DNA from: a virus
IMG/VR virus record: IMGVR_UViG_3300025815_003005
Coordinates: 1-34,779 of that record
Direction: 5' to 3' (one strand)
DNA length: 34,779 nt
Part shown: one piece after another, positions 10,809-34,779 of the stretch
Position numbering within the stretch: position 1 is the stretch's first letter
Layout: the number at the start of each line of letters is the position of its first letter
The notes under the pieces: generated by a model
Told to the model about the DNA's origin: nothing
Seen by the model: only the letters and a program-made list of their open reading frames with translations
Database searches by the model: none
Program-made: the position numbers and the translations under genes

Positions 10809-12428
10809 TTAATTTTCGGGTGTTCTGGACTGAGATTGCCAATATCCCAGCACTTGTTGGGCCCCACGGGCTCCAAAGAAGGCAGAAAATGCCTCATCGT
10901 CATTGATTTCGAACTCGCCATCAGGGGTGCGTTTTGCAATCAGTGAGGGTGGTTGAACGTTGTTGTTCCACAAGTAAAATTCGTCATATAGCCCGCTGGT
11001 GATCTGGCGCGGAACGATTGCACGCATTTCTCCTGCGATTTGGCTACCGAAATGGCCGGGAAGAACAGGTCCGCCTTGTTCCCTGTTTCTAGCGTTGCGT
11101 TCGGCAAGACGTTTGTCGGCAACGTCATCTGGGATGTACACAAAATGGCCAGCAGTGCTGTATCCGTTATTGCGTGCCCACTGCAAGTGCTCAGTACGCT
11201 TACCGGTGCCAGTCACAACGATGTCAGTGCCTAAATCCCGTGCGGAATCCATGGTTTTGTCAGTTGCTTGACGTGATGCTTCATGCACCAAACTGGCGCC
11301 TCGACCGTTGTCGTAGCCCTCTAGACCTTTCTTGATCTCGTCGGGATCAATAACGGCAGCCGCATTCGAATCGGGAACGTTCAGCGTTCCGTCTTCCATC
11401 AACGTGGTTTTTCCAGCACCTGTTGTTCCGCCGACAAAATGCACTTTTCGTGATCCGGGTGGCTTGTTGCGGTGCTGCGGTTCGACTTTGTCCAAGATTT
11501 TCTTTGCAGCGGTTCGTCCACCAGCACCGATACGCGAGTGCCGCATTCCGTCCTGAATTTCGGCGAAGCGAGCCCGGTTTTCTGGGGTGATCCCTGAAAG
11601 GACAGACGCGGGTGCTTCACGCATGTAACCCGGATCGTCTTGAAGCACCGAGTTCCACAATTTCGTGTGCTTTTTCAGATCGAAAGCACTTGGAGCCTTT
11701 GGGGTCACAGGACGCTGGAAAGCGCTTCCGTCCTGAACCATGCCGTCGTTGTCACCATCAACAGCATTCGGATCGAAGCGTTGAGCCCGCCGACCCAACG
11801 ATTTGCCATTGAGTTCTTCGTGCAGGGAAACCTTGCGTTTGTAACGCTTGCGCGTCCTCAGGAACTCTTCTTCAACGAGACGGCGCGCTTCTTGACGAGC
11901 CAACCTCGCCTGATAACGACGTCCCAGAGCAGTAGTCCCTGTCCGGCGTGCGTAGTCGGTGATGTTGCTGCACGGCGTCCAGACAGTTGTTCCGTTTCGT
12001 GAACGACGCCGAGCGACACCAATGCATCCCAATTGGCGGGCGCGCCTGCGTGCGGATCTGATGTCGGTGAAAACATCTTCGTCGCCTTCGTGTGGGATGG
12101 CTGAAGCCGCTTTGCCTACGGATCCAGAAACAAGGCCTCCGCCGGGGATGGTGTCAATCGACGCAACTCCGCGTTCGCCAAGTTTTTCCCACGTCTTCTT
12201 GTTTTTCTTCTTTTTGCGACGGCCTTTGCGTTCACGGACGCTTTGGAAATCATGCATTCGGGAAAGAACCGATTTTTCTTCCCGTTCTTCCTCAGCCTCA
12301 AGGCGTTCGTATTCTTCGTGGGTTTCGCACGCCATCCAGCCGCCGTCGGGGTGCTTGTGCGCGCCAGAACAGCCAAGTTCTTGTGCTCTCCGCAAAGCGG
12401 AAGCCTTGTCCTTGGCCTCCCCTGACAT
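10809..12428 (-). CDS. Head-region protein with zeta-toxin-type kinase domain
   Basis: This is a 539-residue multidomain protein. A duplicated cysteine module comes first: LGCSGAHKHPDGGWMAC (18-34) and LGCIG...WTPC (133-153), followed each time by a tyrosine-containing helix. Residues 71-78 are very basic (RKKKKNKK). Next is an Asp-rich box with RFDPNAVDGDNDGMVQDG (217-234) followed by a Pro-rich joint. The C-terminus, from about 325, is a P-loop domain: Walker A GGTTGAGKT (333-341), DPDE (361-364) and GHFVYIPDDVADKRLAERN. This matches zeta-toxin/UDP-GlcNAc kinases and their phosphotransferase relatives. An antitoxin gene is not seen. It stands directly upstream of the capsid gene and shares the Asp-rich box with two other giant proteins here, so it may be packaged in the head. 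Kinase fold likely; substrate unknown. Confidence 0.8.
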   Translation of the reverse strand: MSGEAKDKASALRRAQELGCSGAHKHPDGGWMACETHEEYERLEAEEEREEKSVLSRMHDFQSVRERKGRRKKKKNKKTWEKLGERGVASIDTIPGGGLVSGSVGKAASAIPHEGDEDVFTDIRSARRRARQLGCIGVARRRSRNGTTVWTPCSNITDYARRTGTTALGRRYQARLARQEARRLVEEEFLRTRKRYKRKVSLHEELNGKSLGRRAQRFDPNAVDGDNDGMVQDGSAFQRPVTPKAPSAFDLKKHTKLWNSVLQDDPGYMREAPASVLSGITPENRARFAEIQDGMRHSRIGAGGRTAAKKILDKVEPQHRNKPPGSRKVHFVGGTTGAGKTTLMEDGTLNVPDSNAAAVIDPDEIKKGLEGYDNGRGASLVHEASRQATDKTMDSARDLGTDIVVTGTGKRTEHLQWARNNGYSTAGHFVYIPDDVADKRLAERNARNREQGGPVLPGHFGSQIAGEMRAIVPRQITSGLYDEFYLWNNNVQPPSLIAKRTPDGEFEINDDEAFSAFFGARGAQQVLGYWQSQSRTPEN

Positions 12429-12429
12429 G

Positions 12430-12776: not shown

Positions 12777-15700
12777 TTATGGGAACTTAACCCCATCGCC
12801 CTCTTTGGCCTTGCTCAACATCTGGCTGGCTTCTCCGCCGCTGATTGCGCTAGCGGTATCAGCCACAGCAACCGTTCCACGGTTGTGTACGAGGGTTACG
12901 CCGTTGTGCTCGACATAGTCGTAGCCAAGGAATGCGGCGTAATAGCCAGAGTCGAGACGGGTGAGGTCTTGGAGGTACTCGAACGAATCCCATGCGTCGG
13001 ATCGGCCAGCATCATCCGGCTTCATTCCGGCATACATGTCTAGCCACTGGCTATAAATCTGACCCATTTCGCTTTCCAAAAGACCAGCGACTCCAAGACG
13101 CTCTTCCGCTTCTTTGATGCGGGTACGAATCTGAGTGACGGCGTTTGCGGGATCTTCGCCTTTCAGCGCGCCATCTCCCAATTCGGCCATCAGAGCAGAC
13201 AGTTCCTTGCGGAGAGTGTTGTGCTTGTCTTTGATGCTTTCGATGTCTCGGCCGCTGATCTTTCGTCCGTTGGGGTCGACGAACCCGACCATGCCTTTGC
13301 CGTATCCACCCCAGTGTCCGCTTCCTTCAGGAGCCCAATATTCACCGGTGCCGTAGGCGCGTCGATGCGGGTCTGAAATGAAGCGAGAGTCGCGGTCTTC
13401 ACGGTAAGCATCGGAGTACTGGTTGGCTGTTCCGTCTGGCCCAACACCACGGTGAAGTGGCTTCCAGCCTGCATCGAGGAGTGCTTGCACCTCGTCTTCT
13501 GAAAGGATTTCGGGGAGTGCGTTCATGTTGCCGTTTTCCCACAGGTCACGAAGGAAATCGTCCTTCGTTTCGCTGTTCCGCTCACCACGATCGCGTTCGT
13601 CCTTGAGGCGCTTCAGGCTGGACATGTGCTTGAGGAATTCTGCGTCAACGACTGGACGGCCGAGTTTGTCGCGCTTCAACGGGTGTGCTGAACGCTTCGC
13701 TTCAAGAGCCTCGCGAATCGACTTCTCGTTCCTTTCACCACGCAGACGTCGACGCAAACGACGCATCTGACGGGCAAGCCGGCGACGCAAACGAATTGTT
13801 TCAGCGAGGTCCACATCGGTGGCTCGACGTCCACCACGTCCCTGACGGCGGGCACGACGGTTTGCTCTACGCTGCGCCCTGCTGGGGTCTGGGTCAAGGA
13901 GACGGTCGAAAAGAGGACGGCGACGCTTGCCACGGCGACGGGCTGCTCGCTCAGACACGGTCTCGGCCGCACCCTGAGCAGAACCAAACGCCTCTTCGTT
14001 GAAGAACGTTGACTCGCCGGCACCGTCCAAAGCGGCAAGAGTTGGGATGCTCTTATCTTTGGATCGTGCCCGCTTCACGATTTCCTTGCGAGAAGGTTCG
14101 TGGAGGTGCTCGATGAAATCAAACTTGTTCGATTCACGCATGTTGTTGAGCGTCTTGATGTCGTTCAACTGTTTCTGGAAAGCCGCATGGGCCTCCTCGG
14201 TGATGTCGCCATCACGAAGCGCGTCGTCAAGCCGCTGCTGCATGCGAGGAATCAAGTCTGTGTCGATAGGGACACGCTTTCTTTCATCGAGAGACATGCC
14301 TTCGTAGCGCCCATCGTCTTCCATCGTGTTGCGGATGGGGCGGAACAGGCCGTTTTGTGTCATCGCCCAAGCCAACTGGCCTTCGCGCTCCTTGATCGCT
14401 TCGATCATTTTTTCGCGTTGTTCCGGCGTCAACTGCTCCATGATCTTGCCGTCACGGTCATCAACTTTCTTGATGCCGTTACGACCGGAGCCGAAGCGGC
14501 GACGGCCAGCACGCATGCCGCCTCCAAGTCCGGATGCGCCGGTGATTTCGTCCTGTGCGCCACGAATTCGTGAACGGCCACCGCGTGCACTTTGCATGCC
14601 GCCACCAGATGACACAACTGATGGCACGTTGCCAACCTTGCCGATGCCATCATTCTTGGCGTTCTTCTGCATGTCAGCCCAAGCGCCTTCGCCATAAACC
14701 TTTTCGACGCGCTTCTTGAGTTCACGAATGACTGACTGGTTGTTGCCCTGCTTCGGATGAAGCCCGAATTCGCGCGGAACAATCCCGCCACGCATAAGGC
14801 GCTCACCGAATTGCTGCTTCCATGAGTCAGGTTGGCGTTTCGCCCATTCATAGAAACGGTCAGGCGGAGCAAACCTGATGTTGCCATTTACCGGACCTTG
14901 CCAAACCCAGCCGTTCGCGGCCAGCATCTGCAAATCCTTACGGACATCCTTCATCGATTTCGGGATGTATGTTCCATAAGTTTTCGGGTTGCTTGAAGGC
15001 TGGCTAGGGGCGAGCGAGTTCGCAGTATCTCCGCCTCCACGGCTGGCCCGAAGACCGCCATTTCCGCTGATTTTCTGCACTCGTTCAATTGACGGTGCGT
15101 CTTCAAGGCCGCTGCTGTAAGTAATGCGGGTGCCGTTAGGCGTGTCCACGGTCAGCGTCTGAGTTCCTTCAAGAGACTCGCCCGGATCGTCGAAAGTATC
15201 TTCCGAATAAAACTCGTTGCGGTTGAATGTCCAGCGCGATCCCTCCATTGGCCCGTCAGGGAAAATGCCTTCTCTGACTTCGTCGCTTTCGCTGACGCGG
15301 GCGCCCCATGACGTGCGCTGTCCGGTTGGCCCTCCACGCGATTCGCCGGCGTCTTCGATCTCGCCCGGCCATTCAGCGGAGTCGTCATCGAACGGGAGAT
15401 CGTCGATGTATTTCTCCATCTCGGCGTACTCTTCATCGCTGACGCCCAGTTCGCGTGCTGCACGGGAGCGCAGGTCACGCTCCATCTCGTTCCGTTTTTC
15501 CGCCATCTGTTCTGGGGTCATTCGGCGTGAAGCCAAACCACCGCCACCTTCGAATCGGGATGGTGTGTCATCGGGGGAAATTGTGTCAAGGTCGCGCCAC
15601 TCCGACGTGCGGTTCATGTTGTCGTAGACGAGCGCGCGGTCTCCGTCGATTTCCTCAACGTTGTAGCGGGCTTCTGGTCCGAAGGATTCACCTGCCCGGA

Positions 15701-17978
15701 CACGCCTTCTACTACCCATGCCTCCGGTCGAGAGGCGGGTGCCACCATTGTCTTCGATTGAAGGGGAAACCCACACGCCATCGGGTGAGTCGATTGCGCG
15801 TCCTAGAAGGTCTAGAACGTCGCCCTCTTCTGGGGATGGGTTGCCTTGTTCGACTTCTGCGGTGTAAAGATCTTCGAGCATTTCGCGAAGTCGTTCCGCG
15901 TCAGCGCGGTCGAGACGAACAACGTCAACTCCGGCAGCAGCATCTTCGATTGCGTCGGAAAACTCTTGCCACAGTTCGTCGGCTTCAGAGTCGTTAGCCG
16001 CTGCGATGTCGTCACGGATGCTGTCGACAATGTCGGACAAGTAGCCGACTTCTTCCATCGTCAAGTCGATATCTACGAAATCGCCTTCGGGAACCGATCC
16101 ATCTTCGTTTTCTGATCGGCGTGAACGCATTCCACCCATCTTTGGCTGCAGCATAGAGTGCCGTCTAAGAGCGTCGTTGATCTGCTTTTCTAACTCTCTA
16201 CGATCCTTTGGCTTGATGTCTTTGTTGTCTCTGACACCGGTAAGGGCAGCCAAAAGGAAATCAAAAGCGTCGTCTGAGTTTGCGTCCGTGTTGCCGTCGA
16301 GGTAGTCGGCAGCAAACCTGATGTTGTCAAACAAGTCATCGCCAAGAGAGGCATAGCCGCCTTCGGCTTTATCAATACGAGAGAGCGTTGCCCGAATGTC
16401 GTCTCCAGTGGCACGCTGTGAACGCAGTCCATTACTCCCATTGAACTGCGAAAGACTGTCGGCTTCTGCGACTCGTTGAACTTCTTCCGCTGTGTCAAAC
16501 TGCCGTTTGTCGCCATCACGGATGGAAATCCCTTCAGTGTCGTAATCAGAAAATCCCGTTTGCCGTCCAAAGAATTTTCCAGTCTCGGTGTTCCTGTAGA
16601 TTTCTTCGAGGCGCCCAAACTCATCGCGACGCTTTGCGACCAACTCGCTCTGCGGATCATTTCGCAAATAGAAAGGCTTTCCATCGCCCGTCCAGTCAGT
16701 CCTTTGAGATTGACGCTGTGAACGCATTCCGCCTCTATCGCGTGCCGGTGGTTCTGGGATAACTCGGCCAGAACGTTCGCGAACAGCGCGACGTGATGGG
16801 CCACCATCAGCACCCGGAGTGTTGATGATGCGGTTTTGGCGTGCGCGGCCAGACGGGCTGGTTTCTTGAACGAAACGCTCAAGGCGCAGACGAGCCACTC
16901 TCTCTGGATCCATGCGCGGATAATCTTCGTTTCCGGGTCGATTCCTTTTCGGTCCCAGTAACTCAGCGCCTCCGCCAATCCGTCCGGTTCGGCGGGTAGC
17001 GCGACGAGACTGCTGCCCCTGCGTCCCCGGAGCCGCTTGCAAGAATCGGGCGTCATTGCCCAGACGATCGTTGAGAGTCGCCTGATCAATACCGAGGTCT
17101 CGCTCGCCGGCACGGCGACGCTTCTCAATCTCCATCGAGTCACCTTCAAGGGCCCGCGACACGCGGCGCGCCATGCCCTGAGGGACGATGAACCGAGGGA
17201 TGATTGGGCGCTCCATGCCAGTGACACCCTCGAAAACGATTCCGTCTCGGTCGCCGTCAACACGACCAGTGATGTCGACAAATGCCATTCCTCGTGGGGC
17301 TGCACGCAGGCCACCGCCAAGTTTGGGCCCAAGTGCTTTCACGTGAAGATCAAATTGGTCGTCTAGTCGGTATCCGTCGTGATCGTCAAGGATGTCCTGC
17401 TTGGCGTGGAAAACATCTTTGGCTGCTCGACGCAGCGGACCATATCCCATGGCCATGTTGGCGAGGTCTTCACGGAGATACTGGTCGTTGTTGCGTGACT
17501 TGAAAACCAGTCCCTTGCGCTCGATACCCAATTTTGAGTTGCGGGCTTTTGCGAGCACGGAACCGCGAGCCATGTCTGAAATGAAAGCGCGCACCTTGTA
17601 GTCGACGGCTTTTTCCGCCGACTCGCCAAAGAACGCAATCGGCGCGTCCTTTACCGAAATCGGGTCGGTAGCAATGTCTGTGCGTTGAGAGTCGATCAAA
17701 GTGAGGACGTCACGGTTGGGGAGGCGGAGGTCCTGCTTGGTTAAAGCCATTTCATTAACGATGACTTCTTCCGCTTCTGTCATGCCACGGAAATCTCCGA
17801 TGCGGACACCGTATGGCAGGTCGTCATCGAGCGACTTGGTGTGCATGTCGTTGAAGCCGTCTGCCCATGCTTCAGCGTCGGTTTTTACAGCGAGGCAGGT
17901 TTCTGAACCGTTTTCGCGGATTACGACACCGTATGTATCTCCGGTGATCGTGTCTTTTACCAGTGCGTACTGCTTCAC
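12777..17978 (-). CDS. Giant repeat-linker protein with C-terminal ADP-ribosyltransferase-like domain
   Basis: This is a 1733-residue protein. The N-terminal 215 residues are a folded-looking domain of unknown type, followed by KALGP and an Asp-rich box (DGDRDGIVFEG, 241-251). Residues 400-1160 are segments separated by the motif G-G-[M/L]-x-[S/A]-x-R (416, 516, 615, 752, 813, 974, 1126, 1153). Residues 1344-1414 are extremely Arg-rich and should bind DNA or RNA. From about 1500 comes an ADP-ribosyltransferase-like domain: PLHRG (R1510), YGTGEYWA (1542-1549), then GYDYVEHNGVTLVHNRG (1686-1702). The GTG start overlaps the upstream stop as GTGA and has a perfect GGAGGT 5 nt ahead. It is probably a head-associated protein. 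Whether the transferase is active is uncertain. Confidence 0.82.
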   Translation of the reverse strand: MKQYALVKDTITGDTYGVVIRENGSETCLAVKTDAEAWADGFNDMHTKSLDDDLPYGVRIGDFRGMTEAEEVIVNEMALTKQDLRLPNRDVLTLIDSQRTDIATDPISVKDAPIAFFGESAEKAVDYKVRAFISDMARGSVLAKARNSKLGIERKGLVFKSRNNDQYLREDLANMAMGYGPLRRAAKDVFHAKQDILDDHDGYRLDDQFDLHVKALGPKLGGGLRAAPRGMAFVDITGRVDGDRDGIVFEGVTGMERPIIPRFIVPQGMARRVSRALEGDSMEIEKRRRAGERDLGIDQATLNDRLGNDARFLQAAPGTQGQQSRRATRRTGRIGGGAELLGPKRNRPGNEDYPRMDPERVARLRLERFVQETSPSGRARQNRIINTPGADGGPSRRAVRERSGRVIPEPPARDRGGMRSQRQSQRTDWTGDGKPFYLRNDPQSELVAKRRDEFGRLEEIYRNTETGKFFGRQTGFSDYDTEGISIRDGDKRQFDTAEEVQRVAEADSLSQFNGSNGLRSQRATGDDIRATLSRIDKAEGGYASLGDDLFDNIRFAADYLDGNTDANSDDAFDFLLAALTGVRDNKDIKPKDRRELEKQINDALRRHSMLQPKMGGMRSRRSENEDGSVPEGDFVDIDLTMEEVGYLSDIVDSIRDDIAAANDSEADELWQEFSDAIEDAAAGVDVVRLDRADAERLREMLEDLYTAEVEQGNPSPEEGDVLDLLGRAIDSPDGVWVSPSIEDNGGTRLSTGGMGSRRRVRAGESFGPEARYNVEEIDGDRALVYDNMNRTSEWRDLDTISPDDTPSRFEGGGGLASRRMTPEQMAEKRNEMERDLRSRAARELGVSDEEYAEMEKYIDDLPFDDDSAEWPGEIEDAGESRGGPTGQRTSWGARVSESDEVREGIFPDGPMEGSRWTFNRNEFYSEDTFDDPGESLEGTQTLTVDTPNGTRITYSSGLEDAPSIERVQKISGNGGLRASRGGGDTANSLAPSQPSSNPKTYGTYIPKSMKDVRKDLQMLAANGWVWQGPVNGNIRFAPPDRFYEWAKRQPDSWKQQFGERLMRGGIVPREFGLHPKQGNNQSVIRELKKRVEKVYGEGAWADMQKNAKNDGIGKVGNVPSVVSSGGGMQSARGGRSRIRGAQDEITGASGLGGGMRAGRRRFGSGRNGIKKVDDRDGKIMEQLTPEQREKMIEAIKEREGQLAWAMTQNGLFRPIRNTMEDDGRYEGMSLDERKRVPIDTDLIPRMQQRLDDALRDGDITEEAHAAFQKQLNDIKTLNNMRESNKFDFIEHLHEPSRKEIVKRARSKDKSIPTLAALDGAGESTFFNEEAFGSAQGAAETVSERAARRRGKRRRPLFDRLLDPDPSRAQRRANRRARRQGRGGRRATDVDLAETIRLRRRLARQMRRLRRRLRGERNEKSIREALEAKRSAHPLKRDKLGRPVVDAEFLKHMSSLKRLKDERDRGERNSETKDDFLRDLWENGNMNALPEILSEDEVQALLDAGWKPLHRGVGPDGTANQYSDAYREDRDSRFISDPHRRAYGTGEYWAPEGSGHWGGYGKGMVGFVDPNGRKISGRDIESIKDKHNTLRKELSALMAELGDGALKGEDPANAVTQIRTRIKEAEERLGVAGLLESEMGQIYSQWLDMYAGMKPDDAGRSDAWDSFEYLQDLTRLDSGYYAAFLGYDYVEHNGVTLVHNRGTVAVADTASAISGGEASQMLSKAKEGDGVKFP

Positions 17979-19936
17979 TTTTTACCTCCGAGGACTTCCA
18001 TGAGTTGCTCTCGGCTCTGTCGAAGCACGTCAACGCGATTTTCGACGATCTTTTGGATGATGTTCAGATGGACTTTTTCGGCGCCGCTCAGTTCTCCGTC
18101 CCTGTAAAGACGATCTCTGAATTTTGTGAAGTTAAATTCGCGGGCTCGCTCAATCAGTTCAGCGATCTGTTGCTGCATGAGCCTTTGTTGATCTTCCTTC
18201 AACTCTCTATAATACTTGCTGTAAAGGCCGTTCCCAGAGACCGAACGGAAGTCACGGATCCGTGCTTTTGTACGTTCCGTAACGCTTACTTCCGACAAAT
18301 TAATCAGTTCGCTCTTTGATATATCAGGAAATGCGAGCATTTCGTCGTCTTTCTTGAGCACCGCAATACTGTTGCTCTTGCGGTCGGTGATATCCGAAAT
18401 GATGTCAGAAACAAGCATCGACGCCATTTCGGTTGTCGGAATGTCGCTCAGTTTGACGTCTTTTTGCAGGGTTGCGCCCTCAATTACGCTATCAGCAACC
18501 TCGACCAAGTAATTCTTCTTGTCGCCCTTGCCGACTGGCGCGATGTCGGGGGAGTTAAGCCCAAGGTAGGACTGCATTTCCGCAGCAAAACTGGCTGAAA
18601 TGTGGTCACCTTTGCCGTTTGACTTCTGCATGCGGTATGTGCCAGCACGATTTGTTTCGTACAAACCATTGTCACGCTTGAACATATTCGCCTTCGTCAA
18701 TGCTTCCTGCAAAATTGACGGAGCGATCGCGGAAAGAGGCCCGCCGTCACGGATGATGCGCGCCGCCTGAGCGATATCAGTAACTTCCTCAGTTTCTTCC
18801 TTCGGCGCAGGCGCTTTCTTGGGGGCCTTACCGCCACTCGAAAGGATCTGATCAATAGTTTTGCCACCAGACAGGTTCTCTCGGTACTGAATCCCATCAC
18901 CCGTCTCGTCGGACACGAACTTGAGACGCGCAGCCGAATCAGAGTCGTTAGACGTTTTGATGCCCTTGTTGACGGTTCGACCGAGTTTGCGGCGCTCACC
19001 AGTCGTCAAATTTCTAACTTTTTCGAGTTCCAGCGTCGAGCCGCCCGGCAGCACATAGGTGAGTTTGGTGATGCCGGTGTTTGACAAAAGCCCAAGTTCT
19101 TGGCCGCCAATGTCGTTCTTGCTACGCGCAGTCAAGAGATATGTTGCTTCGACCATGTCGCGGTTATCAGGAATAGTGCGCAACACCTGCGCTGAAACCA
19201 CCGGCTCAAGAATAAATCCATCACGTCGAACAAGACGGGCAGCCTCCACACCCTTGGGGCTCATGCCCTTTACGATTTGCTCTTCACTCTTCGAGCGGGC
19301 CTGCTTATTGGTTTTCTGAGCAACGCGCGGAATCTGCGGAGCACGAGGGTTCACCACGCTTCGACCACTCGAACCACTACTGATAGCCCTAGGTTCAGTT
19401 GTTGAACCTTCTGGCGCGGGTGTCCTTGCTGCGGCACGACGGCGAATCTGTGAAATGGTTTCACCCAAATCGCTCGGCATGTCAAACAATTGCTGGCCGC
19501 AAGTGGTGAACTCGTTGTCAGTAAACCGACCACCGTACTGATATCCCTCTGGGCAACGTGCAGTTCGTCCACGACCGGGGATCCCACGGCCTCGACGTCC
19601 TCCCGGCGTCAACGCGCGGGCAATACCGGAACGGATTGGGCTTCGGGCTGGGGAAATATTTCCGGGGGCCGCGTAAGTGCCGATTGACTGAGCGACCTGC
19701 CCAAGTCGGCTTCTTGAACCAAAAAGACCGACACGCTTCTCTTCGAATTGGCGCAGACTACCAAGACGCCGCGCAAGCGCTTTGAACTCAACGACTTCTT
19801 CGGATTTTGCGCCCATGCCACGGATGTGGTCATGGTTTACCTTCGTTGACAGATCAGCGAGGATTGTCCTCTTGATCAGGATTGGCGGACAGGCTTCGCA
19901 ACCAAAATCGCGTTCGTAGACATATGACTCAACCAT
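17975..19936 (-). CDS. Head-region protein with possible HipA/PI4K-like kinase domain
   Basis: This is a 653-residue protein. Two cysteines (FGCEAC, C13 and C16) lie near the start. Residues 110-127 are Gly/Arg-rich, followed by the box RCPEG...GGRFTD...TTC (127-146), also found in the 2421-residue protein. Ser/Pro linkers follow. Residues 424-545 recall HipA/phosphatidylinositol-4-kinase-type kinases: YRMQKS (K438 as ATP lysine), an AAEMQSYLGL helix, DITDRKSNSIAVL (D518, N522 as catalytic loop) and LAFPDIS (D538 as metal ligand). The C-terminal 90 residues form a long charged coiled coil. The ATG shares one base with the upstream TGA. The kinase call is pattern recognition only; the rest has no known fold. 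Confidence 0.78.
   Translation of the reverse strand: MVESYVYERDFGCEACPPILIKRTILADLSTKVNHDHIRGMGAKSEEVVEFKALARRLGSLRQFEEKRVGLFGSRSRLGQVAQSIGTYAAPGNISPARSPIRSGIARALTPGGRRGRGIPGRGRTARCPEGYQYGGRFTDNEFTTCGQQLFDMPSDLGETISQIRRRAAARTPAPEGSTTEPRAISSGSSGRSVVNPRAPQIPRVAQKTNKQARSKSEEQIVKGMSPKGVEAARLVRRDGFILEPVVSAQVLRTIPDNRDMVEATYLLTARSKNDIGGQELGLLSNTGITKLTYVLPGGSTLELEKVRNLTTGERRKLGRTVNKGIKTSNDSDSAARLKFVSDETGDGIQYRENLSGGKTIDQILSSGGKAPKKAPAPKEETEEVTDIAQAARIIRDGGPLSAIAPSILQEALTKANMFKRDNGLYETNRAGTYRMQKSNGKGDHISASFAAEMQSYLGLNSPDIAPVGKGDKKNYLVEVADSVIEGATLQKDVKLSDIPTTEMASMLVSDIISDITDRKSNSIAVLKKDDEMLAFPDISKSELINLSEVSVTERTKARIRDFRSVSGNGLYSKYYRELKEDQQRLMQQQIAELIERAREFNFTKFRDRLYRDGELSGAEKVHLNIIQKIVENRVDVLRQSREQLMEVLGGKK
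17984..17989 (-). promoter_or_regulatory. Shine-Dalgarno GGAGGT fixing a GTG start
   Basis: A perfect GGAGGT on the minus strand lies 5 nt before GTG 17976-17978. It sits inside the last codons of the upstream gene and supports this start for the 1733-residue protein, which shows no nearby ATG. Confidence 0.85.
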
Positions 19937-26600: not shown

Positions 26601-29600
26601 CGTAGTTCCCGGACACGCCAGCGTTCAGAAGGTTTGCGAAGTTCTTGCCGCTTTCGAACGAGTTCGCTCTGCCGTTGCGCTTCGCGCTAACAAGGCCACG
26701 CATGATGTCGTCGCCATTTTTTTCGTTGACCAACACTGGCATCCCAACACGGTGGGTGATGTCGCCAAGACCGTATCCCGTGCGGTGTGAAACCTCTGGC
26801 CGCAGGACCATCTCGATGTTGCCGAACAGGGAACGGTCACCGGCAGGGTTGCGGTCTCCGGCGTTCAAAAACTCGCGTCGACGACGAGCAGGGAAACCCT
26901 TGCCGGGTACGTCCAATTCGGCGAGCAGCATGTCAAGTTTGTCATCGTGGTTGGCATGAGCCATCGTGCCGAAAACCGGAAGGCTTTCGTTCGGGGAAAT
27001 GTCAGACCACCCGAAGTTCTGTGCTACTTCAGCGGTTTGCCCATTCGACGGGTGAGGGAACAGGCCCGTGTACGCCATCTCATCGAATTCGTCAGCCGCC
27101 ATGTGGACTCTCGGACGCTTATCAATGGCATCGTGCCATGTTTGAGCAGCCTCGCCAACGACATTTGATGCGGCATCAGGCCCGTAACGATCGATGTAAT
27201 CGCGCGCTTCGGGGGTGAAGTCGATTGTCTCACCGTTACTGGAGAGACCTCGGCGGGCAGCAGCAACACCGTTGTCAAACGTTTTGTCAACGTCGAGTTC
27301 GTCAGGACGCTTACTTGGCGACCGGTTGATGTTGAATGGTTCAATCTTCGAATCACGGAAACGCTTTGACAACGCATTCCGTTTGCTTTCCATGCGGTGA
27401 CGGACAGCAGGGTCGTCGCTGTGAGGGGAAAGGCGTGCTTGGCCTGACGGTTTGCGGCGTGGCTCAAGAACTGCCTTGAGACGGTCGCGTTCACGACGTT
27501 CGCTTAGGCTGGTTGCTGGCCCCATTGCGTCGAGGTCACGCAGGATACGGTCGGCGTAGTCGGCAGCCGATTCCTGACGTGCAGGCGTGAAAATCGGGAT
27601 GTCGCCGTTGTCGCCGTCGATCAATTTCAAATCGCCGGGTGGGAGAATGATTGATGTCATCTCCCCGCTGTCTTCATTTTCGCGGAACAGGCCTTTAGAT
27701 CCTGCCGGGAGGTAAACGCGAGCAGACTTCAATCCGCCAGCGCTTGACCCGCCATCGAAGTCAAGATCGGACTTGGATTCGGGTGTTGACAGAACGCCTT
27801 CGAACACCCCAGTTTTTTTGTAGAGGTCTGCGGATTTCGGGTCGTAGTTCTGGCCATAAGGGCGAACCAATGGCCTTCGGTCAAACGATGGGTCAAGCAA
27901 TGGGTGAAGCATTGTGTCTGGGTCATCAAGAAGAATCGTCGCTTCGACTGCTTCTTCCAGAACGTTCGAATCCATAGCGTCAAGTAGAGGAAGCACGTCC
28001 TCAGTTACGGTTTCACTCGGGGAACGAGAAGGCTTACCTGCAGCAGTGCGATTTGCATGAGTTTTCAGAAGTTCTTCCAGCGACGCTCCTCCGAACACTG
28101 CTCCAGTGTTCAGGTCTTCCAAAGACTTGCTCATCGCATCACGTTCGCGGCGCGTCATCTTCCGGCGAGCCTTTTGGGATTGTTCGGCCCCATAGCCATC
28201 CGGGTCCGTCGTCCAACGTGGAACATCTGGATACAACTGCGGGATGGCATTTTCCAGTTTGCGCATTTCTTCACGCAATTCTGTTTCATCCCAGATTTCG
28301 TCGACACCTTCGCGCTGATTTCGCTTGTACGGCTTTTTGCCACCCGAACGGAAGTACTTGCCGGGTTCGTTGCGCTGGAATCGACTATCACGGTCGGCAC
28401 GCTGCGCGTCGCTGGCGTTGATTCGTCGAGCGTTCTCGTCGGAGATCTGAGCCATGCCCTTGGTGGCAAGCCACAGTCTGGTCCGATCGTCGAGTGAAAC
28501 TTCTTCGCCACCTCTGATCCGCGACATAATCGCCTCGGCATCATCTCTTAATTTCTCGAAACGCTTGTCCAAAGTTTCGGGTGACATCTGGGCATACGAG
28601 GTGTCCGGCCAACCCCATTGACGGGCAATGGCCTGACGTGGGATTTCTTGCGATCCGCCACGCTTATCGTCAGGACGGCCACCGAAACGTGAAATGAAAT
28701 ACCGTTCCATCATCGCGAACGGTTCCTGCGACGGGAAAACTTCTCCGGTCTCTGCGTCGATACCCCAAGCGATACCGTGCGGGATCACCCCAACATTTTT
28801 TTCAGAATCTGGTGTTGGAGGGCTGTTGGGAGGGTTGACGTCAGGAGCGCCCGGCGGATCGACTCGTGGCGGGGTGGGAGGACGCGTGATAACTCCGGGC
28901 TTGTCCGGTCCGTCCATCCAGCCTGTGAATTCGTCAACGAGATCGCTGTCGATGACACCCATTTTTTTGAGTGCGCGAAGTTCGGTCAGTCCTTCCATGA
29001 GGGCAACCGCCGCTATCGAACGATCTTGCGGCCCTCGTCCATCAGGACCCCAGTATGTTTGCACCAACTCTTGGTAGTACCTGCCTGACAGAATGTGCAG
29101 CATTGAGCCCTCGAAGGCGTGGATGCCGACAGGCGGGAACCCTTGCGGTACGTGACCGTCAGGAAGTTCGCCCTTCATCATCTGGTTCAACGCTCCGTGC
29201 CACATCTCGTTGGTCCACTGGTCGGGCGGATCCGTGACCCTGACAGCGTTGCCGTCACGATCAATGAGCACCATGTGCCCGACTGATTTGTGATGATCGA
29301 GGATTGCTTTCCGCGCAGCCAAATACTGGTGTGCGTGGCCGGTTTCGTGGAATGCAAGGTGACGTCCTGCCGCACGGATCGACTCGTGACGTGCAGTGGA
29401 TAGATCTGTAGCGAAAACGTCTCGCCAGCGTTCCAAATCGATTTGCCCGCGCATCATTGACGCGATCTCAGCCCATTGTTCTGGCTCGCTGCCGATTGCA
29501 TCTGTGTCGACGACAACGTACTTCCCGTCGGTCATCTCTCGGAACGAGCCGTTCTCGATGATTGGGCGTAGCGTCATCGCGGTTGGGTTGAACTGCATCG

Positions 29601-30924
29601 TCAAACCGAATCCGGTGTTCGGATCGAAGGCGTTCGGCACCATCTCGCCATCTGTGCTCCAGAAATCGTCGATGGTTTCTTCTGGCCCACGTGGACGGAA
29701 CTGGAGTCTCCGGATTTGCCCGACGGATTCTGAACCTTCGTAAAACTCTTGTAGAACGCCTTCGAGGAATCCGCCCATCACTTCTTCGTGACGCTTGGCG
29801 AGTTCTAGCGCAGCGTCATCGTCGCCACCAGTCCACTCGCGGTACTGCGATTGAATGACCTGACGCATGTTGTCAAGATTTTCTTGCAGCGACTTGCTGT
29901 CATCCCACAGGGATTCACCACCGGTGATGCCGGTAAACAACTCCGAGAAATCGACATCCCAGCGGTCGGTTTCTTTAAGTTTTGACAGCGTGTCCCAAAG
30001 GTGCGCGTTGTTGTCCGTGTCAGTCGTTGCACCGACCATCGCCTGCAACGACTTGATTGCATCTTCGGTGTCTTTTTTGCGTTGATCGAAAACGTGACGT
30101 GGTGCGAGCATTTCGCTAGCCGCAGCCATCGCTCGCCTGTTCGCTTGGAACTCTGGATCATCTTCAGGGTCACGATCCATTTGCTGAGCAAGACGCCCGG
30201 CAGCGGCATAGTTGTTAAACCATCCCCTCATCCGGCCGAGTGCACGCAAAGAACTAACTGGAGGAACGAAACAGTTTGTGCCGAACTCGTCGGTGAACTG
30301 GTTGGCTGCTGGCGTGCCGGGAGGGCACCTGAATTTACCGTTTTCGTCGGTGATGACCCCGATGGCGCTAGCGGCACGTGACGCCAAGTTGCCTCCGGGC
30401 ACCATTCTGCCCAGCGAGCGCCCCAAACCTTTGACCGAGACTTCCTGCTCAGAACCTTCGAGACGTCCACCTGTACGGGGGTCAATGTCGTAGGTCCGGA
30501 TACGGACTTTTGGTCGACGCTTTTTCCAAGCCATCGCTTCATCCATCAAGCGTTTTTGTTGGCTTGGTGTAGTTGGCGTTGGCGGGTCGACCCAACCGAA
30601 GTTTGGCTTGTCCGACGACTTTAAGGTGTCTTTGGCGCTGACATGGAGTTTGAGAACCTGACCCGGCTTCTTCTTAGCATTGGGCGCATATCGAAGTTCG
30701 GGGATGCGTTCAGCAACGCCTCCACTGGTCCGTTTTTCGGACTCTTTTCCGCCACCCGTTTGAGCCTCGTTGAGGGCCTTGGCCGAAAAGTTGGCGTCGA
30801 GTTCAGTTTTGCTGGAGATTAGAGCCGTGTTAAGACGAAAGATCGAGCCGATCTCTTCGTAGTTACGGCGAGGCTGAAGAACTCGATCTGAGAGTATGTG
30901 TCTTGTGGCTCGGGTGTGGGCCAT
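23659..30924 (-). CDS. Giant multidomain protein: metallopeptidase-like, DUF3626-like and ADP-ribosyltransferase-like regions
   Basis: At 2421 residues this is the largest gene of the window. From the N-terminus: the box RCPPG...FTDEFGTNC (199-218); a metallopeptidase-like domain with HETGH (526-530) and MEGLTEL (643-649) as possible third ligand; a Pro-rich linker (681-706); a degenerate ADP-ribosyltransferase-like segment (about 1035-1105: GVLSTP, ARVYLPAGSKGLF, SIILPPG) in which the usual E-x-E appears lost; and a region resembling DUF3626 (about 1305-1480: SLPVFG, SLFGNIEMVLRPEV, GYGLGD). A Gly/Ala-rich segment follows (about 1691-1710). Last comes a C-terminal ADP-ribosyltransferase-like domain (SRGG with R2193, GAGVYFA, GYDGLASYG, VILYNRSAV). 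Linker motifs GGLKSAR (1063), GGLRSSR (1488) and GGMASRR (1829) separate regions. It is probably a head-packaged effector; this is inferred. Confidence 0.82.
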   Translation of the reverse strand: MAHTRATRHILSDRVLQPRRNYEEIGSIFRLNTALISSKTELDANFSAKALNEAQTGGGKESEKRTSGGVAERIPELRYAPNAKKKPGQVLKLHVSAKDTLKSSDKPNFGWVDPPTPTTPSQQKRLMDEAMAWKKRRPKVRIRTYDIDPRTGGRLEGSEQEVSVKGLGRSLGRMVPGGNLASRAASAIGVITDENGKFRCPPGTPAANQFTDEFGTNCFVPPVSSLRALGRMRGWFNNYAAAGRLAQQMDRDPEDDPEFQANRRAMAAASEMLAPRHVFDQRKKDTEDAIKSLQAMVGATTDTDNNAHLWDTLSKLKETDRWDVDFSELFTGITGGESLWDDSKSLQENLDNMRQVIQSQYREWTGGDDDAALELAKRHEEVMGGFLEGVLQEFYEGSESVGQIRRLQFRPRGPEETIDDFWSTDGEMVPNAFDPNTGFGLTMQFNPTAMTLRPIIENGSFREMTDGKYVVVDTDAIGSEPEQWAEIASMMRGQIDLERWRDVFATDLSTARHESIRAAGRHLAFHETGHAHQYLAARKAILDHHKSVGHMVLIDRDGNAVRVTDPPDQWTNEMWHGALNQMMKGELPDGHVPQGFPPVGIHAFEGSMLHILSGRYYQELVQTYWGPDGRGPQDRSIAAVALMEGLTELRALKKMGVIDSDLVDEFTGWMDGPDKPGVITRPPTPPRVDPPGAPDVNPPNSPPTPDSEKNVGVIPHGIAWGIDAETGEVFPSQEPFAMMERYFISRFGGRPDDKRGGSQEIPRQAIARQWGWPDTSYAQMSPETLDKRFEKLRDDAEAIMSRIRGGEEVSLDDRTRLWLATKGMAQISDENARRINASDAQRADRDSRFQRNEPGKYFRSGGKKPYKRNQREGVDEIWDETELREEMRKLENAIPQLYPDVPRWTTDPDGYGAEQSQKARRKMTRRERDAMSKSLEDLNTGAVFGGASLEELLKTHANRTAAGKPSRSPSETVTEDVLPLLDAMDSNVLEEAVEATILLDDPDTMLHPLLDPSFDRRPLVRPYGQNYDPKSADLYKKTGVFEGVLSTPESKSDLDFDGGSSAGGLKSARVYLPAGSKGLFRENEDSGEMTSIILPPGDLKLIDGDNGDIPIFTPARQESAADYADRILRDLDAMGPATSLSERRERDRLKAVLEPRRKPSGQARLSPHSDDPAVRHRMESKRNALSKRFRDSKIEPFNINRSPSKRPDELDVDKTFDNGVAAARRGLSSNGETIDFTPEARDYIDRYGPDAASNVVGEAAQTWHDAIDKRPRVHMAADEFDEMAYTGLFPHPSNGQTAEVAQNFGWSDISPNESLPVFGTMAHANHDDKLDMLLAELDVPGKGFPARRRREFLNAGDRNPAGDRSLFGNIEMVLRPEVSHRTGYGLGDITHRVGMPVLVNEKNGDDIMRGLVSAKRNGRANSFESGKNFANLLNAGVSGNYDGMQHRSMKDGPLDAPDYAIESAIAGGFDFEEVEGIIIPVESLGSIGGLRSSRMFDSSQDWETTLSKSSGWAPEEIEFLKTALLDGTFDKVEAANLLRQHITAADNKAMWDRMGMNVRYTNKNGIDLFNKGDLTAFSDSGARIGRVRSPEEALRIRVGDEIMSRQQELRPAVQQGMKSIRRRAQEMLGERVTSEATSRIGGLGRRIRQREVPHSGVQAVGSRLLNSDQAERLFRRAGLDSNDIDNIRFVGEMAAAFGTSGPAGVGLVLARRGSREAIELGVQKAVEQGWLTDTQARRIMRAADTVAPEGLPDEITAAIGDTARDVWDSAAADKARALGEAAAQRVRELDIVDRGMDVFDSARDRILGRGSEPDTPALPASSGTWDPFGGMASRRGSIRSEVPALRGENPEQLRRLGLDMSHNPDSIDQTYYQNIVDIAGDIRLPDPWGEGQGKTIRESFTQTNYKDETYFSSYSGDLDYAIEAVQASDLSDEDKARVVEDLQTVKGLSQLAGVGMSTSKPPGRSRDPFGDDGPEAEFVPPTAEQLDQQIDEIFDSMPESFFENFGSVLADFQKRKETRERREKTQREVESELTRSEARIGYFRLLDENDVLDRTAPVGEATVARPHNPDHEPSVPDPDTLRSIDDLVQLSKDGMVVADSLLKPEHREELRKLLLENPRVKAALDLIRERVASGGYLDDDDIEVETRSGAYYAGRELVDALVHARGMDAAATLLTDDEIDVLRYVDGWTPVSRGGNPEMARRHIEGDGYPIGEGVDGAGVYFAVQGGTERMGINEHFDAAVYAGENGAVMQGVVSPSARFAGPNAIATQREAYRLEVQAGIPQNYSEGANPLLDLRRELVASGDTEMVEALDLMVGTASSDNNGEFPNGSAVIALLQGYDGLASYGSNSADNRVILYNRSAVLLSSNLLSADQYNELKPWEKLEVRAKALAEAHNLPVGLEGAERTEWILQETERRLGELG

Positions 30925-30946: not shown

Positions 30947-32572
<1,626 letters not shown>

Positions 32573-32576
32573 AAAT

Positions 32577-34779
32577 TCAGGAGTTTGGAATCTGAACTTG
32601 ACGTCCTTGTGAGTTCGTCCGGCTCTGGGTACGACTCGTAATTTCTTCTGTTTCTTTTGAAATAAATGTCGAATAAGCCGCTTCTGATAGGCGTTCGATC
32701 ATTTCGGAGAACAAGTCGACACGTGAACCGCCAGTAGCCATTTGGCGATCAAGGGAGAACATCAAAGCGTCAAGAATTTGATCGGCTTCGTCGGCTGTGA
32801 CAGTCAATGTGCCAACATTCGTGCGCCGGTCTCCAAGTTTTCCGGATTCTTGACGTCTCAAGATTTTTTCCAGAAGTTCAAGCCCTCTCACGGTTTTGTC
32901 GTCACCGGCTGAACGTGCTTCACGAATCTCCCGAGACAGTGAGTCCTGCACCCGCTTAAAGAAGGTCGCTTCGTCGGTCATCTGTGTGCGGCCAGCCCTC
33001 TCCGATCGCATTCCTCGCGACGCATCGGCGTATTGGACCACTGATGGGGACGGGTTGTAATTACGGAATTGCTGCATGCCTCCGTCAGCAAGGAAGCGGG
33101 CTGCGTTTACGCCTGCGGTCGCAACATCATCTTCGCCAGCCCCACCAGCACGCACTGCCGCCGTGGTATCACCCTGCTCGATGAACGGGTCGTTTCTGTA
33201 GGAACCAGCGATATCTTCGAGCGTTGACAGCAACGCTTTTGCGGTTCTGACACTGGCGGACTCTTCGGCAGTGAGTTCTTCGCCACTCATATCGTCAATG
33301 AATCCTTCGAGCATCTCAGACATTGACTCGATCTGAGACATGGTCAAATTGTCAGAATCCTGCGCAACGTCTGCCATCTGACCCCAGAAATCGCGGTGGT
33401 CGTCAGATGCGTCGCCGATGTCTGCCGCATCGTTCGCATTGTTGAGTGCACGACCAATGCGGCGATCAATTTTGTCGAGGTCCTTCTTTCGCGCTGCCTC
33501 GGACTGCTCGCGAGTCCACGATTTTGCTGGCTCGTCCGGAGATTCAGTCTCTCCGGCGTCACGACTCCGGGAAGTTTGCGGAGCCGGTGACGGAGCGGCT
33601 GCAGTCTCGTTGCGAAGACGTTCCCGCCTTTCGCGACGAGAACGGTCACGTTCCGCTCTTTCCTCCGCCTTTAGAACTTCGTTCACAAGACGACGATGGT
33701 CAACTTCACGCAAACCACTCTTTGATGGGTGGAGGTTCGTGTACAACTCGTCGAACTTCTCATCTAGCGACATCATTTCCCAGTTCTCAGGCTTGACTTC
33801 AGACCATTTCTTGCCCTTGAAGCGGGTTTCTTCCTGCACAGTGCCCATCGGTCGACCGCGCTGCTTCTCTTTCCCGGTGTCAACGCCAATTGGCTGAGGT
33901 GCCCCACCAGACTCGTCACCTCGTTCAGAGCGCATGCCCCCACGGGCGTTCTCCAACATCGACCAGCCCTTGGGCGAAACTTGCTCGGGTTTCAAGCCAA
34001 CAAATCGTTCACGAACTTCAGGGCTCGCATCCGTCTGGCCCCAACCAAGCAGATCATTGAGATTACGCTTCGTTTTCCCAGAAGGCATAGCAACAGAGTT
34101 GGCGAAACCGCCACCCTTCTTCAGGCGGGGTGATTCGTAAGTTCCTTTTGGATCAAGTGCAGCGAAGTCCATTACCCGCTTGGCGTTCGCGAGCATTCCG
34201 ATCGGCCCAGAATCATCAGCGTTCTTCGCGAGTTCTCCGAACGCATCCATAATGCGATCCGCCTGATCTTTGGAAAGTTTGTCCGAAGAGCCGGCCAGCC
34301 AAGAGTCAAGTTCGGCAAATGGCTGGATGTCAGTGACAGCGTCGCCTGCCTTTTCCAAGGCGCGGCGCAAATCTCCACGCTCATCGTCGTTCAGACGGAT
34401 GGTGAGGCCGCCGTCTGGCACAGAGACACGAGAACGCATCCCGCCAACGTCGTTGATTTGCTGCGCGTTAGGCCGGAAACGAGTCGGGTTGTATTTGCCG
34501 TTCTTTGCCTTCTGCTTGATGTCACGCAGGATTTCGAGAGCATTCGTAACGGGGTCATCTTCTCGAAGTTGAGATGCAACTGCCCCTATGACTCGATCAA
34601 GATTTCCGAGACTGATACGTGGGCCTTTGGGGTCCATGAGGCTCTCGACAACAGCGTCCAAAACTTCGCGTGCCCCATCGGACATACCTGTTTGCTCTTC
34701 GGCGAAGTCGAGTAGGTCTTCTGCCAATTTGCGCACACTTCGGAACCCCATGCCAACACTGATGTCTTGGCCAGAAGCC
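32577..34779 (-). CDS. Large helical linker-motif protein, 5' end outside window
   Basis: The frame is open from the right edge to a TGA at 32577. The first internal ATG is at 34751, giving 724 residues, but it has no ribosome site and nine further in-frame codons (ASGQDISVG) precede it, so the gene probably begins outside. The visible part is helical and charged, with the linker motif at GGMRSR (103-108), GGMRSER (271-277) and RGMRSER (579-585), numbering from that ATG. A basic stretch (about 363-380) and a Ser/Pro linker divide it. RFRPNA at 91-96 echoes the RFDPNA start of the Asp-rich box but lacks the aspartates. No enzyme domain is visible; one may lie in the missing N-terminus. It is the first of the giant proteins seen in this late operon. 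Confidence 0.75.
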   Translation of the reverse strand, partial: ASGQDISVGMGFRSVRKLAEDLLDFAEEQTGMSDGAREVLDAVVESLMDPKGPRISLGNLDRVIGAVASQLREDDPVTNALEILRDIKQKAKNGKYNPTRFRPNAQQINDVGGMRSRVSVPDGGLTIRLNDDERGDLRRALEKAGDAVTDIQPFAELDSWLAGSSDKLSKDQADRIMDAFGELAKNADDSGPIGMLANAKRVMDFAALDPKGTYESPRLKKGGGFANSVAMPSGKTKRNLNDLLGWGQTDASPEVRERFVGLKPEQVSPKGWSMLENARGGMRSERGDESGGAPQPIGVDTGKEKQRGRPMGTVQEETRFKGKKWSEVKPENWEMMSLDEKFDELYTNLHPSKSGLREVDHRRLVNEVLKAEERAERDRSRRERRERLRNETAAAPSPAPQTSRSRDAGETESPDEPAKSWTREQSEAARKKDLDKIDRRIGRALNNANDAADIGDASDDHRDFWGQMADVAQDSDNLTMSQIESMSEMLEGFIDDMSGEELTAEESASVRTAKALLSTLEDIAGSYRNDPFIEQGDTTAAVRAGGAGEDDVATAGVNAARFLADGGMQQFRNYNPSPSVVQYADASRGMRSERAGRTQMTDEATFFKRVQDSLSREIREARSAGDDKTVRGLELLEKILRRQESGKLGDRRTNVGTLTVTADEADQILDALMFSLDRQMATGGSRVDLFSEMIERLSEAAYSTFISKETEEITSRTQSRTNSQGRQVQIPNS

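What the first reader, a model, noticed from the sequence alone, without database searches (positions are those of the whole stretch)
10809..34779. A mosaic set of head-region giant proteins carrying effector-type enzyme domains on shared modules
Between the capsid gene and the right edge lie at least five large proteins (539, 1733, 653, 757 and 2421 residues) that pair common N-terminal or linker boxes with different catalytic-looking domains: zeta-type kinase, ADP-ribosyltransferases, HExxH metallopeptidases and a possible HipA/PI4K-like kinase. Phages such as T4 are known to package an ADP-ribosyltransferase (Alt) and inject it. Here a whole battery with shared boxes suggests a modular delivery system in which the common boxes target cargo to the head and the variable domain acts in the host. 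The role is inference; domain and box recurrence is seen.
Basis: partly seen in the sequence, partly recalled or inferred. Interest (0 to 1): 0.92.

Follow-up and report, generated by a model that had tools for sequence, protein, structure and literature searches.

The report
Phage head proteins carrying punctuated enzyme cargo
A phage of Actinobacteria and its relatives fuse long chains of enzyme-like domains onto ordinary head-building proteins, apparently to ship them into the bacterium, and each phage separates these domains with its own short repeated peptide that looks like a private set of cut or docking sites.

Summary
The giant proteins are real and lie in the head-gene cluster of an uncultivated actinobacterial phage. 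Relatives explain them: conserved N-terminal carriers (S78 prohead protease, N1, P2N, P4N) are followed by a DxDxDG junction box and variable cargo. N1, P2N and P4N also occur as small cargo-free proteins. Cargo is a zeta-type kinase, zincin-like and ART-like domains here; in relatives also ArdC-N/MPTase-PolyVal, KTSC, pentapeptide repeats, sigma-70 region 4, NUDIX and DnaJ. These are phage polyvalent proteins (Iyer 2017) in a new arrangement. A distant cultured counterpart, P-SS2 ORF030 (zeta plus ART-like), is in virions by published mass spectrometry.

Unexpected: in 8 of 8 record sets examined at length, one short peptide, often different between phages (GGMRSxR here; GFASRG, R[FL]SSG, ISGRM elsewhere), recurs 8-20 times in these giants. 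It lies outside recognised domains (66 of 67 copies in ten chosen giants) and after the junction box (64 of 64). Codons of the copies vary freely in 4 of 6 phages. In four whole records, 65 of 76 copies are in the head cluster.

I read it as a phage-specific processing or docking site. Packaging, delivery and cleavage are inferred. The ART call is weak; P0003 has a kinase fold but looks like a constant head-region protein.

The parts
32577..34778 (-). P0007, 733 aa, 5' end beyond the contig: C-terminal part of a giant that in relative G001 starts with an S78 prohead protease; carries copies of the repeated motif
   Evidence: 38.6% identity over 655 columns (E 6e-110) and 62% over 149 residues up to the last residue of the 1751-aa G001 protein; S78 in that protein E 4.5e-10
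30947..32572 (-). P0006, 541 aa, acidic, scaffold-like; about 70 C-terminal residues resemble the C-termini of cultured phages' capsid maturation proteases
   Evidence: 56% over 73 aa to GMA6 ORF19, 50% over 74 aa to DalanDe protease; match in 10 of 11 records searched; scaffold role is inference
23659..30924 (-). P0005, 2421 aa giant with zincin-like part and ART-like C-terminus
28825..29667 (-). P0005 residues 420-700, zincin-like region with HETGH
   Evidence: HExxH kept in G001 (HEIAH) and G004 (HEMTH); no Pfam hit
23662..24435 (-). P0005 residues 2164-2421, ART-like C-terminus
   Evidence: profile of the P0002 C-terminus matches 2164-2273; aligned in A1
21189..23462 (-). P0004, 757 aa (839 aa in near-identical contigs): carrier P4N, box B, zincin-like part with HEMTH
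23127..23462 (-). Carrier P4N, P0004 residues 1-112; stands alone in relatives
   Evidence: 22 of 23 non-redundant complete P4N ORFs are under 200 aa
22968..23054 (-). Box B in P0004 (residues 137-165)
19936..20583 (-). 215-aa conserved neighbour in the same gene order
   Evidence: matches in 36 of 87 loci searched, many of them cut short
17975..19936 (-). P0003, 653 aa, C-terminal part with HipA/CtkA/CotH/PI4K kinase fold
   Evidence: VIA Z 13.8 to CtkA 3akj (217 aligned, rmsd 4.0), 13.5 to CotH, 13.0 to HipA; Foldseek E 1.4e-4
12777..17978 (-). P0002, 1733 aa giant: carrier P2N, box B, eight motif copies, ART-like C-terminus
17637..17978 (-). Carrier P2N, P0002 residues 1-114; stands alone in relatives (166-282 aa)
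   Evidence: 14 of 51 non-redundant complete P2N ORFs are under 300 aa
17193..17261 (-). Box B in P0002 (residues 240-262)
14502..16730 (-). Stretch of P0002 with eight copies of the repeated motif G[ML]x[SA]xR (residues 417-1159)
   Evidence: shuffle test
12858..13541 (-). ART-like domain, P0002 residues 1480-1707
   Evidence: weak
10809..12428 (-). P0001, 539 aa: carrier N1, box B, zeta-type kinase
11862..12407 (-). Carrier N1, P0001 residues 8-189 (starts with DUF3721)
   Evidence: DUF3721 E 1.9e-11; 13 of 63 non-redundant complete N1 ORFs are under 260 aa
11697..11783 (-). Box B in P0001 (residues 216-244)
10875..11522 (-). Zeta-type kinase domain, P0001 residues 303-518, with a GxxGxGKT P-loop visible in the sequence
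   Evidence: Pfam Zeta_toxin E 9.5e-13; profile span
9341..10675 (-). Major capsid protein, next gene after P0001
   Evidence: Phage_capsid E 2.4e-45

Best explanation
The cluster is the head-morphogenesis region of an actinobacterial phage in which several head-region proteins double as carriers for polyvalent cargo. Shown by sequence: conserved N-terminal modules (S78 prohead protease, N1, P2N, P4N) are followed by a junction box and then by enzyme-like domains, and the long stretches between domains carry a short peptide that is repeated within a phage and often differs between phages; N1, P2N and P4N also exist without cargo. Inferred: the carrier brings the chain into the procapsid, the cargo is packaged with the DNA and ejected into the host, and the repeated peptide is where a co-evolving phage protease (S78 or an embedded zincin) cuts the giant into domain-sized pieces, or else where a phage-specific partner binds. 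The cargo would act early in infection on host defence, cell wall or transcription. The confidence below is for carrier-borne delivered cargo as a whole; for cutting at the motif alone I give about 0.4.
For: Carriers bare or loaded: N1 63 non-redundant complete ORFs, 13 short with box B 0 and zeta 0, 50 long with B 31 and zeta 38; P2N 51, 14 short (0, 0), 37 long (B 26, ART-like 31); P4N 23, 22 short (B 0), 1 long (B 1). S78 protease fused to cargo. Polyvalent signature domains on relatives' chains. Head-gene context between portal and capsid. P-SS2 ORF030, with zeta (115 bits) and ART-like (17.4 bits) matches, is in virions with 96.5 average peptides (Table 2 passage of PMC2784084). Precedent: 30 N-terminal residues of P1 DarB send a reporter to the capsid (abstract passage of PMC9024508). 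Motif: 8 of 8 long sets above shuffles, 66 of 67 copies in ten chosen giants outside domain footprints, 12.1 inside expected, 64 of 64 after box B, codon-free in 4 of 6 phages, 65 of 76 copies in four whole records within the head cluster.
Against: No protein of this clade has been seen in a virion here. Two phages show excess codon sharing among copies (G006 308 against 224.3, G008 129 against 98.7). The window's own P0002, P0005, P0006 have no Pfam family up to E 0.1 and P0003, P0004, P0007 only weak sub-cut-off ones. 19 of 50 long N1 and 11 of 37 long P2N ORFs lack a box B hit. Only 16 of 45 shorter or partial sets passed the motif threshold, a few of them with low-complexity patterns.
Confidence: 0.72

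Rival explanations
1. The giants are packaged polyvalent proteins, but the repeated peptide is not cut: it is a docking motif by which each linker binds a phage-specific partner (scaffold, portal, DNA, chaperone) while the chain is packed or threaded out.
For: The capsid junction does not vary with the motif; copies also occur in tape-measure-like proteins; spacing is irregular, so some pieces would be very short (positions).
Confidence: 0.3
2. The giants are large structural or decoration proteins of the head, and the enzyme-like domains are inactive remnants used as building blocks.
For: P0003 has a kinase fold with incomplete catalytic residues; the ART-like domain lacks an obvious third catalytic residue in the alignment; P-SS2 ORF030 was labelled a capsid protein by its authors.
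Against: Zeta keeps its P-loop and scores well above cut-off; HExxH is kept in the relatives aligned; domains vary freely between close relatives while bare carriers suffice in others.
Confidence: 0.15
3. The cargo acts not on the bacterial host but on grazers that eat infected cells (the 'Trojan horse' idea proposed for VIP2-type ARTs of freshwater phages).
For: That idea is in print for freshwater phages, some of them predicted to infect Actinobacteria (passages of PMC6802176); Gordonia phage Gray has an ART annotated VIP2-like in the same gene interval.
Against: Zeta kinase, ArdC-N, sigma-70 region 4 and pentapeptide repeats belong, by what is known of these families, to bacterial targets.
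Confidence: 0.05
4. The repeated peptide is a by-product of DNA-level recombination or duplication that shuffles domains.
For: Domains are shuffled; codon sharing is above expectation in G006 and G008.
Against: In G001, G004, G005 and G009 copies share codons no more than expected (49/51.3, 105/110.6, 46/41.8, 160/151.6).
Confidence: 0.05

Closest known systems
Phage polyvalent proteins (Iyer et al. 2017, PMC5512222)
   Same: Giant chains of unrelated enzyme domains encoded among virion genes of portal-terminase phages; MPTase-PolyVal, ArdC-N, ART, zeta, NUDIX among the domains.
   Different: Carriers that also occur bare, a junction box, S78 protease at the N-terminus (the paper says assemblin-like peptidases are always C-terminal), and a repeated peptide private to the phage; none of these was seen in the passages read.
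MuF polymorphic toxins (Jamet et al. 2017, PMC5576092; abstract and outline seen)
   Same: Conserved head-related N-terminus with exchangeable toxin C-terminus.
   Different: No MuF domain in the seven large window proteins (Pfam up to E 0.1); several different carriers and several cargo domains per chain.
P-SS2 ORF030 minor head protein
   Same: Zeta of the same family and an ART-like match of the same kind on one chain, in virions.
   Different: N-terminal part looks like MuF by eye; no N1, B, P2N carrier found; siphovirus of Prochlorococcus.
P1 DarB/DarA and SPN3US/T4 head ejection proteins
   Same: Head-packaged, N-terminal targeting, processing by a phage protease (passages of PMC9024508 and PMC10052503).
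   Different: SPN3US processing removes propeptides at one shared motif type; here many motif copies lie along one chain and the motif differs between phages.
Head-region genes of Gordonia phages Gray and DalanDe and Brevibacterium phage Cantare
   Same: Similar capsid, same interval between portal and capsid holding large proteins, RNA ligase, ART and protease.
   Different: No box B, N1, P2N or P4N profile hit in the loci scanned; protease lies next to the capsid gene.

Membership tests
Phage polyvalent proteins | Several domains of disparate activity in one polypeptide | tested here: met
   Relatives: L036 (zeta, pentapeptide, ArdC-N, MPTase), L051 and L065 (NUDIX, DnaJ, zeta), L098 4109 aa (S78, KTSC, ArdC-N, MPTase)
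Phage polyvalent proteins | The same, in the window's own proteins | tested here: inconclusive
   P0005 has HETGH and an ART-like end, both without a Pfam hit
Phage polyvalent proteins | Encoded among virion genes of a portal-terminase phage | tested here: met
   for seven long relatives; the window itself holds capsid but not portal or terminase
Phage polyvalent proteins | Packaged and injected | not testable with these tools
   Only the P-SS2 counterpart is known from virions
MuF polymorphic toxins | N-terminal MuF domain | tested here: not met
   No MuF family among Pfam matches up to E 0.1 for the seven large proteins
Zeta-type kinases | Zeta_toxin profile above curated cut-off with P-loop | tested here: met
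   48.5 bits against 22.3; P-loop in P0001
Zeta-type kinases | Phosphorylates UDP-GlcNAc | not testable with these tools
   no assay
HipA/CtkA/PI4K-type kinases | Fold | tested here: met
   Z 13.8 CtkA, 13.5 CotH, 13.0 HipA, 11.7 PI4K II beta
HipA/CtkA/PI4K-type kinases | Catalytic Asp, Mg-binding Asn/Asp | tested here: inconclusive
   Asp at fragment position 283 and Arg 287 invariant in 26 sequences; the Asn and the second Asp are not; assignment of roles by eye
ADP-ribosyltransferases | ART fold | tested here: inconclusive
   VIA Z 5.0 to a PARP domain and 4.6 to PARP1, 100-119 aligned; other middling rows too; no Foldseek PDB match under E 1
ADP-ribosyltransferases | Catalytic triad | tested here: inconclusive
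   RG and GxGxY kept; the third residue was not identified
Zincin metallopeptidases | HExxH in a conserved context | tested here: inconclusive
   Kept in the one (P0004) and two (P0005) relatives aligned; third ligand and fold not tested
Prohead protease S78 (carrier of P0007) | S78 domain at the N-terminus | tested here: met
   In relatives G001 (E 4.5e-10) and G006 (E 2.9e-10); the window lacks that end of the gene

The most novel reading that the evidence does not exclude
Phages of this clade write private punctuation codes into their virion polyproteins: one short peptide, repeated 8 to 20 times between cargo domains of several unrelated genes, read by a co-evolving phage factor (most likely a protease) that frees the effectors as separate enzymes. 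The code differs between related phages and could keep one phage's cargo from being processed by another.
Probability: 0.4. Interest if true: 0.85.

Novelty: new variant of a known kind. Interest (0 to 1): 0.72.

Why it matters
If right, phages of Actinobacteria carry several thousand residues of ready-made effectors into the host, attached to head proteins that act as interchangeable sockets. Bare and loaded versions of the same carriers make the head-targeting signal directly testable. The repeated peptide would be a new kind of polyprotein site in phages, with a specificity that changes between relatives and can be compared over many natural variants.

Tried and rejected
Prohead-protease site shared with the capsid protein: the capsid's presumed delta-domain junction was aligned in the window, 61 other environmental loci and 2 isolates and does not vary with the motif. 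A looser form, hydrophobic-x-small, would fit both but is too common to count.

DNA-level repeat: codon test speaks for peptide-level conservation in four of six phages tested; the window and G007 were not tested.

Box B as targeting signal: missing from all 49 short N1, P2N and P4N ORFs; partly a consequence of length, since they end about where the box would begin.

Sequence searches that led little further: P0005 against isolate phages, no match at E 1e-3; P0001 only P-SS2 records, 25.6% identity; PDB sequence profiles for the ART-like and kinase-fold parts, best E 0.42 and 0.19; phmmer of P0001, two TraT matches, best E 0.021, outside the zeta part; Foldseek of the ART-like model against PDB, best E 1.0; Pfam for five P2N-position giants of relatives, no family up to E 0.01; genome-contig scan with P0003, 114 pattern matches of which 1 confirmed, in a 12-kb MAG contig, so no clear prophage in that scan. 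In the VIA list for the ART-like model most rows cover only the inserted helices, and no known family is excluded by that list.

Literature: zeta + phage + capsid + MuF, no paper. Searches that could have shown the repeated motif listed nothing on it by title or abstract start; only passages of some of these papers were read, so absence from print is not established.

The 1352-1715 aa ORFs of the tail region are called tape-measure-like: three of the seven tested match isolate tape measure proteins, weakly (E 1e-4 to 8e-4); the others, among them those of G006 and G008 that hold motif copies, rest on size and strand. BFVD entry C7F476 has the length of P-SS2 ORF030, but its identity was not confirmed.

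Rows dropped: 50 used ORFs of at least 150 aa for loci and sets of at least 1500 aa and merged near-identical loci by a crude key; one search counted only ORFs complete in their locus and merged near-identical ones; one search used ten giants that I chose because they had recognised domains. The motif patterns were written after seeing the enriched patterns.


Full report
What the window is. A 34,779-base virus record, no tRNA found, 54% G+C, with a WhiB gene (Pfam E 7.3e-16); WhiB is used as a marker of actinophages (passages of PMC6802176). The capsid protein is HK97-type. The 15 best isolate matches of 979 are Brevibacterium phage Cantare and Gordonia phages at 47-51% identity; Cantare, Gray and DalanDe are annotated with tail sheath genes. 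A scan of IMG/VR with the capsid confirmed 425 relatives, of which 80 were kept.

The proteins. P0006 (541 aa) and P0007 (733 aa, open at the edge) belong with them. P0007 matches the C-terminal half of a 1751-aa protein of relative G001 up to its last residue, and that protein begins with an S78 prohead protease. So the window starts inside a protease-fused giant.

Gene order. In long relatives (G001, G004-G009) the order is terminase on the other strand, portal, S78 protein, P0006-like, P0005-like, P4N, g19936, P0003, P2N, N1, capsid (with the capsid-side parts of G004 and G006). Exceptions in my gene picking: no P2N hit in G008; no P0006 ORF picked in G005 although one search finds the match there. 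The S78 proteins are 785, 881, 1751, 2089, 2290, 4109 and 4736 aa. S78 was confirmed by Pfam in two of them and by similarity to isolates' proteases in all seven.

Carriers and cargo. Profiles from window segments show one layout: N1, box B, zeta; P2N, box B, ART-like; P4N, box B, zincin-like. In other relatives N1, P2N and P4N are small complete proteins. Over L006-L085 and L126-L198 (153 loci, some of them the same contig fetched twice), after merging near-identical ORFs: N1 63 complete ORFs, 13 short (0 with B, 0 with zeta), 50 long (31 B, 38 zeta); P2N 51, 14 short (0, 0), 37 long (26 B, 31 ART-like); P4N 23, 22 short (0 B), 1 long (1 B). Short forms end about where B would start, so its absence there is partly forced. 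Without merging, 122 of the 126 N1 ORFs with a capsid gene downstream lie within 400 bp of it (137 N1 ORFs in all). Where cargo sits differs: G006 and G008 have bare N1 and P4N but S78 proteins of 4109 and 4736 aa; G007 and G009 have S78 proteins of 881 and 785 aa but N1-position giants of 3915 and 3927 aa.

Cargo domains. In the window: zeta-type kinase, HExxH in P0004 and P0005, ART-like ends of P0002 and P0005. In relatives, on the same chains: ArdC-N and MPTase-PolyVal (best E 2.9e-43), pentapeptide repeats, KTSC, sigma-70 region 4, NUDIX, DnaJ. Scans of five P2N-position giants found no family. MPTase-PolyVal and ArdC-N tie the clade to polyvalent proteins; the window's own proteins gave no such hit.

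P0003. The model of residues 233-653 (pLDDT 82.6, pTM 0.60) has in its C-terminal part the fold of CtkA, CotH, HipA and PI4K kinases. The family has nearly constant length and I saw no swapped part, so I take it as a core head-region protein with a kinase-like fold of uncertain activity.

ART-like domain. Model pLDDT 89, pTM 0.83. Foldseek against PDB is empty under E 1. In the second look, apart from rows that cover the inserted helices, wheat SRO1 PARP (Z 5.0, 114 aligned) and PARP1 ART (Z 4.6, 100 and 119 aligned) span the beta core; a CRISPR subunit (6nbu, Z 4.5) also spans a wide range, so this is weak. Of viral predicted structures nine match under E 0.001, all unnamed or uncharacterised; one named PolyVal ADP-ribosyltransferase matches at E 0.045.

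The repeated motif. In eight sets (window plus seven records; G004 and G006 in part) the commonest gapped four-residue pattern scores LLR 21-75 against at most 13.5 in five local-composition shuffles each. Patterns: GMxSxR (window, G001), GLAS (G004), GFSSxT (G005), GFASR (G006), R[FL]SSG (G008), ITGxM (G007), ISGRM (G009). With the relaxed patterns the head clusters hold 8 (G005) to 20 (G008) copies, 15 in the window. Four more sets gave one clear hit (L009, same motif as the window) and three near their shuffles; of 45 shorter or partial sets, 16 passed 1.5 times the shuffle maximum, a few with low-complexity patterns. Motifs are shared by near relatives (window, G001, L009; G009 and L065), so the change is between lineages rather than strictly one per phage. 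In four whole records (124,435 aa of picked ORFs) I count 76 copies: 65 in the head cluster (one inside a P0003 homologue, perhaps chance), 6 in tape-measure-like proteins, 5 in one 3208-aa giant elsewhere in G005 that has a box B match. In ten giants with recognised domains, 66 of 67 copies lie outside the domain footprints (12.1 inside expected). In 11 proteins with both box B and motif, 64 of 64 copies follow the box (about 2e-6 under random placement). In six phages tested, codon agreement between copies is at expectation in four and above it in two. So the peptide is what is kept.

A cultured counterpart. P-SS2 ORF030 (1499 aa) has a zeta match of 115 bits at 418-629 and an ART-like match in two colinear pieces (17.4 bits in all); the N-terminal part looks like MuF by eye. 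Table 2 of the P-SS2 paper lists ORF 030 at the same coordinates with 96.5 average peptides in virions, labelled major capsid protein. A protein with such cargo can thus be a prominent virion constituent, on another carrier. P-SS2 is a distant phage, so this is precedent, not proof for the window.

Mechanism. I commit to carrier-targeted, motif-punctuated polyvalent cargo. The cutting role of the motif I put at about 0.4, docking at about 0.3. Zincins are the alternative: Iyer and colleagues proposed self-processing of polyvalent proteins by zincins (section read), and each of the seven records and the window has at least one HExxH in a giant.

Papers and how far I read them. PMC5512222: abstract, outline, passages, two sections. 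PMC9503650, PMC10052503, PMC6802176, PMC9024508: passages. PMC2784084: passages and one section. PMC5576092, PMC12810830: abstract and outline. Other papers: listings only.

Noticed in passing
window 2257-4999, minus strand: Four overlapping or adjacent 2OG-Fe(II) oxygenase-like genes in a row (one below the Pfam cut-off).
   Followed up: no
window 6484-8457, plus strand: Ribonucleotide reductase with a B12-dependent class II insertion domain, on the strand opposite to the head genes.
   Followed up: no
window about 21190-21241: P0004 and the next small ORF are one 839-aa reading frame in three near-identical contigs, so the window copy carries a frameshift or an assembly error.
   Followed up: partly
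L116:2-9628 (record G005): A 3208-aa giant (cut at the start of the fetched piece) outside the head cluster with five copies of that phage's motif and a box B match, no Pfam family.
   Followed up: partly
P0003 residues 76-155 and P0005 residues 199-218: A second shared box with two cysteines, of the form CPxGxxxxxxFTDxxxxxC, joins these two and some relatives' proteins.
   Followed up: partly
L125 (JASLZV010000019.1): The only confirmed P0003 relative in the genome-contig scan lies in a 12-kb contig of a Phycisphaerae MAG, probably a misbinned phage piece.
   Followed up: no
window 5118-5414, minus strand: Small Lys/Ala/Pro-rich protein with a sub-threshold match to histone H1-like HC2.
   Followed up: no
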